DNA from: Naematelia aurantialba | Lineage: Eukaryota > Basidiomycota > Tremellomycetes > Tremellales > Naemateliaceae | DNA length: 64,000 bases | Reading direction: 5' to 3' | Assembly: GCA_021527695.1 (NCBI GenBank) | Contig: JAKFAO010000007.1 | Coordinates: 620,001 to 684,000, forward strand | Shown: positions 54,916 to 57,900 of the stretch, piece by piece | How positions within the stretch are numbered: position 1 is the first letter of the stretch | Layout: each line of letters opens with the position of its first letter | Program-made: the position numbers and the translations under genes | Notes under the pieces: generated by a model | Seen by the model: the letters and a program-made list of their open reading frames with translations, nothing else | Databases searched by the model: none | Told to the model about the DNA's origin: nothing

Positions 54916-57900
54916 TCACACCCGTGTACTGCCCGACTCGCACTGTGAGCTCCTTCCTGAGCGAACTGCCTCGCCCCGTCGAGCTATGAATGTCTCTCCC
55001 CTTCCCTGGCCCATCGCATCCAGCACACCGTCCTGCTCGTTGCCACCCCCATCTCGATCTCGATCTTCATCTCCATGTCCTGCCGTCACGCCAACGCCGT
55101 CATGTCGCTGTCTCCGTATCCGATTCTCTAGAGGATAGCTACCGCTGTTCGTTCGAACGTCCCCCTGACTCCAGTCTATACGCACCGTGCGGTCCTGGTC
55201 GCCAGACATGTCCTGCTCGAGATCGCGCGATGGGTCCGAGCTTGTCGACTCTGAATCCCGACGCCCAGTCGCGTTGGACTTTTCATTAAATCGCAGACTG
55301 GCTGGCCGGGTAGACGGTTCGTAGTTCCCTTCGAGGTCGCGCTCGTGGAACGCATAGTCTGCCACGAACTCGCCCAGCTCGACTTCCTGTTGTCCCAACG
55401 AACAAAAGCCAAAATACTGCGTCAGCACCGGACTCTGAACGCTGTGGCGAGCGAGGGAGGCCGCGGCAGCTGAAGTGGCGACTAGGAAAGTGATGGGGCA
55501 TGTGATGACGTTGACATTGGCGTGATGGTGGCCTTCGCGGTGCGGGAACAGATGACGCGGGAACAAAGCTGGAAGAAGACTCACGTCCATACCAACAATC
55601 TCAGCTTCCTCGCTCGCTCGGAAGTGGCAGCCCGGAATGAGGTTGATGACATACATGATCGCGTAGGTGACGACAAAGGTCCACGATAGACCGACGACGG
55701 CCCACACGAGCTGCTTGGCCAGTTGGACGTAGTTGCGGTCCCTGGGCCCGTCAGCCATCAAAGCCGATGTGGGATCGGGATACTAGGCGCGGGTCTGGCC
55801 TCGGGATGCTGCGCGCGGCTGTCACGCATGCCAGGCGGGCTGGGGTGGGAAGGCAGTGACCCTGGGGGAGGGGGGGGGGGGAGTTTGCACAGGATGGAAG
55901 AGACTCACAGCCAGCCGCCGTCGATGGCTGAGAAGCCGTCATTTGCTGCTACCGAGGACTGTGCAAACCTGTCTCGCTGAGTCAAACCCTCACTCAAATA
56001 GAAGAGACGGCAAAGACCACTCACAGACCAGTCATGAGTACGCCGACGACTCCTGCAAGGGCGTGTACGGCGAAGATGTCCATTCTGACTTGTTAGCGGG
56101 GACTTGCATTCAGTCCTGGGCACAGGTTTGGCGGGTCGAGCATGTCCTGCATATTGCCAGTCAAGTATGATGACCAGACCGAGCACACATCCCTAATCCA
56201 GGGAAGCGCGACGCAGCGACGCAACGGACAACAGTAGGGGCGCCGAGAGAGCGCCGAGATGGTCGTGAACTGGACTCACGGATCGTCGACTCGCATGGTC
56301 GTCTTGAGCCGCGTACACAAATTGCACACGACGGAACTGACCAGCCCAGTCAATGCGCTTGCGGGGGCACCGACAAATCCCGCCGCGGGAGTGATCGCCA
56401 CGAGACCCGCAATGGCGCCTGTGCACCACCCCACGACGGACCACTTGCGTTCCAGTCGGAAGTCCATGATGAGCCATACGATTCCGCTTCGACGTCAGCC
56501 TAGACTTGCTTCTGACAGACCTGTCGGAGACGACGATACCGAAGGCAGAGAAAGAAGAAGGAGGTAGGATGAAGGAGGAAGAGAACAACAAGGAAGGAGG
56601 AAGGAAGAAGAACGAAGGAGGAGAAACGCGACTCGCTCACCCTACAGACCCCGCGAGGTTGGTATTGAACACCGCCATGGCGGCTTTGAGTGACGCAGCG
56701 AAACACGAGCCACCATTAAAACCCAGCCATCCGACCCAGAGCAAGACCGTGCCCAATACCACTTGGCTGAGTACGTACTAGTATCAGCCTATCTCATCCT
56801 GCCAGTCCCTGACTTGTATTCTGCGGTACAGCACCGAGTGACGCCCGATACTTGCAGAGGTATGGGCGGATGTGTGCCGTGAGTGCGCAGACTTACCTGA
56901 CATTGGAGGGTTTGAAGACGATCCTCTCGGTGCCGTAGCCACGCCGCTTGCCAATAAAGTACGAGTACGCCAGCCCTCCTGTCCCCGAAGCGATTTCGAC
57001 GGGCACCCCGCCAGCATCTACGGAATCAGTATCGTCTCCGCGTCACTCGAGCCAGGCCACGCACAACTAGAATAGAAGATCAGCATCCGCATCGTGAGAG
57101 ATATGTCTACCGGGCACTTAGCCGACAAGGCGGGATGCCTCCCGGGTACAAAAGTTGGCCCTGGAGAATGGGCAAGGGGGCAGAGAGGGGGATGAAGGAA
57201 GATCAGAGTGGACGTACTCTAGTACACCCCACTTATACGCCCAGCCATGAACGCTCCACACCCAATGCGCCAGGGGATCATACACCAACGTCGTCCAACA
57301 GAAAATGAAGATCATGGCAGGAAGGATCCGGCCCCGCTCAGCCGCCGCCCCAAGTAACACCGCCGGGACGAGGCATGCGAACATCTGCGGCCGTCAGTGC
57401 GGTTTCTGGCCGTCGTGCTCGAGCCTCGAGCCTCGAGCCGAGGGGACTGGGTATAGGGCTTACAAGCTGGTACGTTGCGAAGACTATCTCTGGGAGTTTG
57501 CCGTTGGTCTCGGGGACGGGGCGTTCCAGGACCTGTCGGAACCCGAGATTCCTGGATCGTGATGAGCTGTTGTCCAGTACCAGTATGATGGCTCACCGTC
57601 CGTCGCCAAGAAATGAGCCTCCGGTCTCTGAAAAGACGAGCGAGTAGCCAAAGACGAACCACTGAAACGAGACGATGCCGAGCGCTACAAACGAGAGGAA
57701 GAGGAGGGACAGCGCGTTTTTCCGCCGAGTCAACCCAGAGTATAGGTACCCCAGCCCCGGAAGCTGCGTGGGTCAGCGGGTGACTACATCTATCCTTGAG
57801 GAGGGAGTAGAGCCATACCATGAACACGATCAACGCTGCACATGCTAGGACCCATGAGATGTCTCCTGGATCGTACGCTAAGAGCTCAGGATCAGCTGGT

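What the first reader, a model, noticed from the sequence alone, without database searches (positions are those of the whole stretch)
57018..57217. A 2-nucleotide microexon appears to encode part of the essential DYAGG motif of the ammonium transporter
Exon 5 ends in a GTACGT donor after CTA GA, and the next recognisable exon starts AT GCT GGC. Direct joining shifts the frame and meets a TAA in exon 8. Within this interval the sequence TTCTATTCTAG|TT|GTGCGT gives a consensus acceptor, two bases, and a consensus donor. Joining GA+TT+AT yields Asp-Tyr-Ala-Gly-Gly, the motif in AmtB/Mep proteins whose Asp is needed for function. The downstream intron is then 47 nt, the usual size here, and the whole CDS becomes 1788 nt (596 codons). 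Skipping the two bases would give a premature stop, so inclusion could also regulate expression.
Basis: partly seen in the sequence, partly recalled or inferred. Interest (0 to 1): 0.88.

Follow-up and report, generated by a model that had tools for sequence, protein, structure and literature searches.

The report
Two-nucleotide exon in ammonium transporter
A fungal ammonium-transporter gene very probably contains a working exon only two letters long, which completes the codon of an amino acid the transporter needs; the same junction is garbled in published gene models of many related yeasts, so the tiny exon is probably old and widely missed.

Summary
The minus-strand gene assembles into a 13-exon, 1788-nt CDS (595 aa, Amt/Mep family) if a 2-nt exon, TT at 57066-57065, is kept. 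Of 26 in-frame single-intron solutions none gives the conserved DYAGG motif, nor does any single contiguous removal whatever its end letters; exactly 1 of 41 in-frame two-intron solutions does. A site pair as good as this arises in 5 of 20,000 shuffles (criteria set after seeing the site).

The strongest new evidence is from relatives. In 17 of 21 listed Cryptococcus/Kwoniella orthologues the protein model is garbled at this one junction, against 2 indels elsewhere in a 420-residue core. Three Kwoniella mangrovensis strains, identical over 192 residues before and 386 after, have three different junctions. So the two-base gap is most likely an old Tremellales feature, not an assembly error. No relative's DNA and no RNA reads were available: TT itself is seen only here, and splicing is not shown directly.

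One-nucleotide exons are already proven in plants and Fusarium (PMC4674806, PMC8831610, PMC12940212). This is a new, apparently long-conserved member of a known kind. Regulation by skipping is untested.

The parts
54916..58045 (-). Ammonium transporter gene (Amt/Mep, PF00909), 13 coding exons, CDS 1788 nt, 595 aa
57218..57384 (-). Exon 5 (167 nt), ends GGT GTA CTA GA (phase 2)
57067..57217 (-). Intron 5, 151 nt, GTACGT...CTGATCTTCTATTCTAG; branch-site motif CTGAT with its A 14 nt from the intron end
57065..57066 (-). Exon 6, the 2-nt microexon TT: third base of Asp195 (GAT) and first base of Tyr196 (TAT)
57018..57064 (-). Intron 6, 47 nt, GTGCGT...ATACTGATTCCGTAG; branch-site motif CTGAT with its A 9 nt from the intron end
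56897..57017 (-). Exon 7 (121 nt), begins AT GCT GGC GGG GTG CCC GTC GAA; carries Glu203 at the first twin-His position
57222..57227 (-). Cryptic upstream donor GTGTAC; with the acceptor at 57018 it gives an in-frame KWDAGG form of 591 aa (rival model)
56641..56766 (-). Exon 8 (126 nt), where skipping TT meets TAA (codon 252; 49 nt into the exon)

Best explanation
The gene encodes a Mep1/3-type ammonium transporter of a fungus of the order Tremellales or close to it; its nearest neighbour in the tree is Saitozyma (moderate support). Between exons 5 and 7 lie two ordinary small introns separated by a constitutive 2-nt exon, TT. Both introns are recognised by intron definition (GTRNGT donor, CTGAT branch site close to a TAG acceptor). 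Because the middle acceptor and donor are two bases apart they are unlikely to be occupied at once, so the introns are removed one after the other. Inclusion joins GA+TT+AT to make the conserved Asp-Tyr of DYAGG; loss of TT shifts the frame and ends the protein at codon 252. The arrangement is old: most listed Cryptococcus and Kwoniella orthologues carry a two-base gap at the same place, which gene finders fill with spurious residues. Shown: sequence, frame, motif, uniqueness of the solution, garbling in relatives. Inferred: that the RNA is spliced this way, the sequential order, and that the relatives also have a 2-nt exon of sequence YT.
For: Full gene model with 13 exons and an uninterrupted 595-aa frame; residues 1-480 match PF00909 with E 2.7e-112. 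No single contiguous removal of 20 nt or more, with any end letters, yields GVLD[YF]AGGVPVE; 0 of 26 in-frame single-intron (GT/GC-AG) and 1 of 41 in-frame two-intron (GT-AG, microexon 1-15 nt) solutions do. Chance 5 of 20,000 shuffles for a site pair of this quality. Branch motifs CTGAT at 14 and 9 nt from the intron ends; CTGAT (8) and CTGAC (6) are the commonest motifs in 20 introns predicted de novo under the condition that a YTRAY motif is present. The paralogue on contig C8 reads through the site without an intron (GGLDFAGG). Relatives: 17 of 21 Cryptococcus/Kwoniella models have an indel at this junction versus 2 indels elsewhere in residues 36-455. Three K. mangrovensis strains are 192/192 and 386/386 identical outside and read GILDDIVD, ARCDITD and D at the junction. 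In all 12 models whose residue before DAGG is not the W of KWD, it is L, I, V, A or T, each fitting an NYA-G|AT acceptor. The Uapishka_1 model lacks 41 residues = 123 nt = 2+121, the microexon plus exon 7. Four Cryptococcus/Kwoniella models and two read-assembly records (P0010, P0074) read DYAGG.
Against: No RNA evidence in hand and no relative's genomic DNA. The microexon's acceptor is mediocre: 3.32 bits, rank 64 of 173 AGs with a 29-intron matrix, near the low end of the training range 2.8-7.4, and -10.64, rank 167 of 173 with a 10-intron matrix in which no training intron is followed by T. Donor 57064 ranks 12 of 214 or 24 of 214; donor 57217 ranks 40 or 16 of 214. Four of 21 Cryptococcus/Kwoniella models, and 15 of the 16 other homologues aligned (among them Saitozyma podzolica, the nearest protein in the tree), read DYAGG without trouble; some may simply lack these introns, so the microexon's age rests on inference.
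Confidence: 0.93

Rival explanations
1. A single intron from the upstream donor GTGTAC (57227) to 57018 is used, giving an in-frame transporter with KWDAGG, four residues shorter (591 aa).
For: In frame and stop-free. Five Kwoniella models (P0013, P0014, P0015, P0016, P0018) read KWDAGG.
Against: Donor rank 78 of 214 and 90 of 214, -0.52 bits. Only these 5 of the 120 listed homologues have this form. The K. mangrovensis strain with KWDAGG has two otherwise identical sister strains with other fillings, so it looks like an annotator's choice. It deletes four residues, about one helix turn, next to the conserved Asp.
Confidence: 0.03
2. An assembly or sequencing error (2-nt indel), or a recent frameshift that makes this a pseudogene.
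For: A two-base change would also restore the frame.
Against: The rest of the 595-aa frame is intact. Relatives sequenced independently show trouble at the same junction. The missing letters are present between usable splice sites at exactly the needed phase.
Confidence: 0.02
3. A nested twin intron (stwintron), or one large non-canonical intron, removes the whole interval with no exon left inside.
For: Stwintrons are known in fungi (search listing only: PMC9024468, PMC12403724). A removal of 198 nt would give GVLEYAGG in frame.
Against: Any such event is a single net removal, and none gives D[YF]AGG. The EYAGG form needs non-canonical ends and occurs in 0 of 120 homologues.
Confidence: 0.01
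4. The microexon is real but alternatively included, so that skipping (TAA at codon 252) tunes transporter level, for example with nitrogen supply.
For: Skipping gives a stop 49 nt into a 126-nt exon with further introns downstream, a usual setting for nonsense-mediated decay (general knowledge).
Against: No expression data. All that is supported is that skipping would be destructive.
Confidence: 0.07

Closest known systems
1-nt exon of Fusarium CYP621A (PMC12940212; abstract, introduction, results, discussion read)
   Same: Fungal; ultra-short exon inferred from a frame that cannot otherwise be joined, inside a conserved motif, conserved across many species; there confirmed by 18 SRA reads.
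   Different: 1 nt, Ascomycota, P450 PKG motif; here 2 nt, Basidiomycota, ammonium transporter, no reads checked.
1-nt exon of Arabidopsis APC11 (PMC4674806; passages) and of plant APC11/VPS55 (PMC8831610; passages)
   Same: Frame-restoring, missed by annotation, conserved over a large clade; stepwise splicing by intron definition proposed for APC11.
   Different: Plants; shown by cDNA, reporter constructs and RNA-seq; 1 nt.
Fungal Mep1/Mep3-type ammonium transporters
   Same: PF00909; Glu203 at the first twin-His position (aligned with Mep2 His194; the Mep1/3 signature per passages of PMC9040831).
   Different: Nothing seen in the protein core; only the gene structure is unusual.
Stwintrons (listing only)
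   Same: Two introns in immediate succession in a fungal gene.
   Different: A stwintron leaves no exon sequence; here two bases must stay.

Membership tests
Ultra-short (1-5 nt) constitutive microexon | Flanked by canonical AG and GT with usable branch site and donor | tested here: met
   CTGAT...CTAG|TT|GTGCGT...CTGAT...GTAG; acceptor strength only moderate to poor by matrix
Ultra-short (1-5 nt) constitutive microexon | Needed to keep the frame and a conserved protein motif | tested here: met
Ultra-short (1-5 nt) constitutive microexon | Conserved in relatives | tested here: inconclusive
   The two-base gap and flanking boundaries are inferred from 18 garbled models; DNA of relatives not available, so the bases themselves are unseen
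Ultra-short (1-5 nt) constitutive microexon | Present in mature RNA, and constitutively so | not testable with these tools
   No RNA reads of the window species held
Amt/Mep ammonium transporter, Mep1/3 type | PF00909 domain | tested here: met
   E 2.7e-112, 375.9 bits over cut-off 23.2
Amt/Mep ammonium transporter, Mep1/3 type | Glu instead of His at the first twin-His position | tested here: met
   Glu203 aligns with Mep2 His194
Amt/Mep ammonium transporter, Mep1/3 type | Transports ammonium | not testable with these tools
   No assay; inferred from family
Stwintron | Complete removal of both introns leaves the frame and motif intact | tested here: not met
   No single net removal gives D[YF]AGG

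The most novel reading that the evidence does not exclude
The 2-nt exon is an ancient Tremellales-wide switch: inclusion is regulated by nitrogen state, and skipping sends the Mep1/3-type transporter mRNA to decay, which would explain why two introns have been kept two bases apart inside the codon of the conserved Asp.
Probability: 0.07. Interest if true: 0.8.

Novelty: new member of a known kind. Interest (0 to 1): 0.52.

Why it matters
It would put a 2-nt exon, probably shared by the window species, Cryptococcus and Kwoniella, inside the codon of a residue that ammonium transport depends on. It shows that protein models of this transporter are wrong in most of the Cryptococcus/Kwoniella records examined (17 of 21), and suggests why. 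It also offers a compact natural system for testing how a spliceosome handles an acceptor and a donor two bases apart. The fingerprint used here (indels piled up at one junction in orthologues that are otherwise identical) is a cheap way to find more such exons without RNA.

Tried and rejected
Splice-site matrix from the other 10 introns of the gene: too few introns, and its acceptor window overlaps the branch site; a 29-intron matrix was added; both results are reported. A first de novo intron set (928 introns) drifted into noise (many GTC donors, flat acceptors) and was discarded; a stringent set of 20 was kept, 1 of them dropped as a duplicate of this gene. That set was picked under the conditions GTNNG donor, YTRAY motif, length 40-99, so it cannot test those features.

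No listed protein exceeds 83% identity, so its own annotated proteome is probably not in that database. A second protein search was judged not worth its cost. Structure prediction was not run, because alignment answers the question.

Considered and rejected: minor-class (AT-AC) introns (both introns are GT-AG); an intron with non-canonical ends giving EYAGG (0 of 120 homologues); exon skipping as in the Uapishka_1 model (removes 41 conserved residues).

Full report
WHAT IS THERE. The window lies in a 21-Mb, 15-contig genome and encodes, on the minus strand at 58045-54916, an Amt/Mep ammonium transporter. Joining 13 exons at GT-AG boundaries gives 1788 nt, 595 codons plus stop, with no internal stop; residues 1-480 match PF00909 with E 2.7e-112. 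The 12 introns are 45-198 nt long. Twelve of the 13 exons are 59-471 nt; one, at 57066-57065, is two bases, TT. It supplies the third base of Asp195 and the first of Tyr196 in LDYAGGVPVE. A second transporter on contig C8 has no intron at this point and reads GGLDFAGGTPVH.

THE PROTEIN. The best solved relative is Mep2 (5aex, E 9.4e-114); Asp195 aligns with the Asp of its LDYAGG (residue 186 by my count on the printed alignment) and Glu203 with its His194. Glu at that place marks the Mep1/3 type (passages of PMC9040831). The Asp corresponds to AmtB D160 (correspondence recalled), for which D160A and D160E are reported transport-deficient by one set of assays, while an older uptake study found D160E at 70% of wild type (passages of PMC10433425). 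'Needed for function' is therefore fair, with its exact role debated in that review.

IS TT FORCED? I enumerated solutions between exon 5 and exon 7, with donors from 45 nt before the exon 5 end, acceptors up to 60 nt into exon 7, and introns of at least 38 nt. Single introns (GT or GC to AG) that keep frame and have no stop: 26, none with DYAGG. Two GT-AG introns with a 1-15 nt exon between: 41, exactly one with DYAGG, namely TT. Dropping all rules on end letters (removals of 20 nt or more starting up to 30 nt before the exon 5 end and ending up to 30 nt into exon 7), no single contiguous removal gives GVLD[YF]AGGVPVE. The nearest, GVLEYAGG, needs an intron with non-canonical ends and is found in 0 of 120 homologues. 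Skipping TT reads on to a stop at codon 252, 49 nt into exon 8; retaining either intron also stops early.

CHANCE AND SPLICE SIGNALS. With the first 6 and last 16 bases fixed and the core of the 200-nt interval shuffled 20,000 times (dinucleotides kept), 759 shuffles have AG-[TC]T-GT in range, 33 with GTRNGY, 20 also YAG, 5 also with a YTRAY branch motif within reach; any in-frame 2-14 nt microexon with consensus sites appears in 81. The criteria were set after the site was known. Both introns carry CTGAT, 14 and 9 nt from their ends. Among 20 introns predicted de novo from 264 kb of this genome (picked for having a YTRAY motif), CTGAT (8) and CTGAC (6) are the commonest motifs, TAG acceptors make up 8, and T is the first exon base in 7. 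Against: the middle acceptor is weak to moderate (rank 64 of 173 with 29 introns; rank 167 of 173 with the 10-intron matrix), while the middle donor is good (rank 24 and 12 of 214).

RELATIVES, THE STRONGEST EVIDENCE. The 120 best of 7575 homologues were listed and examined; each is the representative of a cluster, and only representatives were looked at. D[YF]AGG is intact in 102; the other 18 all have an indel at this junction: 17 Cryptococcus/Kwoniella and Tremellales sp. Uapishka_1. Among the 21 Cryptococcus/Kwoniella models, 17 are garbled here, 4 read DYAGG (P0001, P0002, P0003, P0008), and 2 indels occur elsewhere in residues 36-455, which span nine other junctions of the window gene; one of those 2 is in P0028, where it may belong to the same garbling. 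Of the 16 other homologues aligned, 15 read DYAGG. Three strains of K. mangrovensis are identical in the 192 residues before and the 386 after, but read GILDDIVD, ARCDITD and D in between: one locus, three guesses. In 12 models the residue before DAGG comes from the intron end; it is L (4), I (2), V (2), A (2) or T (2), every one compatible with a ...YAG|AT acceptor as in the window (the seven fitting residues make up 50% of these proteins, and the 12 are not independent). C. depauperatus models reading VLEW, in one case VLEWVK, fit a GA|GTGGGT donor. The Uapishka_1 model lacks 41 residues, 123 nt, the sum of TT and the 121-nt exon 7. Thus the exon ends GA| and |AT and the two-base deficit appear to be shared; that the missing bases form a 2-nt exon there too is inference, since no DNA of these species could be read. 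A comparative study of Cryptococcus and Kwoniella used BRAKER2, without RNA where none was available (passages of PMC11185503), which could explain the errors; I did not check which pipeline made each model. The C. deuterogattii annotation study mapped RNA with a microexon search (passage of PMC8022950), which could explain why P0002 is right.

READ-ASSEMBLY RECORDS. P0010 (570 aa on a 1849-nt contig, source label 'lgn', which I recall as an assembly of public reads) leaves only 136 nt beyond its coding length, too little for introns as in the window, and reads DYAGG. P0074, 97.2% identical to the C. deuterogattii protein over 325 residues, also reads DYAGG, but its 1604-nt contig could hold short introns, so it is weaker.

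AGE. In a tree of 30 proteins the window sits beside Saitozyma podzolica (94/85, below the tool's star limit), outside the Cryptococcus-Kwoniella group (100/98). Since window, Uapishka_1, Cryptococcus and Kwoniella are all affected, the simplest reading is one origin early in Tremellales, perhaps with losses (the Saitozyma model reads DYAGG, which may mean loss or correct annotation); independent origins are not excluded.

MECHANISM. An acceptor and a donor two bases apart are unlikely to be bound at once, so removal should be stepwise; this is argued for the 1-nt exon of APC11 (passages of PMC4674806) and applied here by inference. The 47-nt intron is of typical size and may go first; order is untested. 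Regulation by skipping is possible but unsupported.

NOVELTY. 1-nt exons are proven in plants (PMC4674806, PMC8831610; passages) and in Fusarium CYP621A (PMC12940212; abstract, introduction, results, discussion), which also states that exons of 2-5 bp are known in Arabidopsis, Drosophila and humans. Ten literature searches were made; the listings of those on ultra-short or fungal microexons show no paper on a 2-nt exon in a fungal ammonium transporter. They cover open-licence papers only, and for the longer results only the top of the list was shown. So: a new member of a known kind, notable for apparent depth of conservation and for its effect on annotation.

Noticed in passing
P0004-P0007, P0009, P0011-P0020, P0022, P0028, P0034: Eighteen Tremellales ammonium-transporter protein models carry spurious or missing residues at the DYAGG junction and need re-annotation.
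   Followed up: yes
P0021, residue about 348: The Saitozyma podzolica model lacks 14 conserved residues near the window's exon 9/10 junction, possibly another exon-boundary error.
   Followed up: no
window 56640-56487 (-): Intron 8 of the gene ends in GAAG rather than YAG, with CTGAC 9 nt upstream: an unusual acceptor in this gene.
   Followed up: no
window 58713-59399 (+): A divergently transcribed frame beside the transporter matches class I/II aminotransferases (PF00155, E 6.7e-16); by eye it resembles 8-amino-7-oxononanoate synthase.
   Followed up: partly
window 29190-30164 (+): An open frame matching semialdehyde dehydrogenase (PF02774, E 6e-39), probably aspartate-semialdehyde dehydrogenase.
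   Followed up: no
L001 (contig C8, around 1782087-1783001): A second ammonium transporter with His at the first twin-His position (Mep2 type) and no intron at the DFAGG site.
   Followed up: partly
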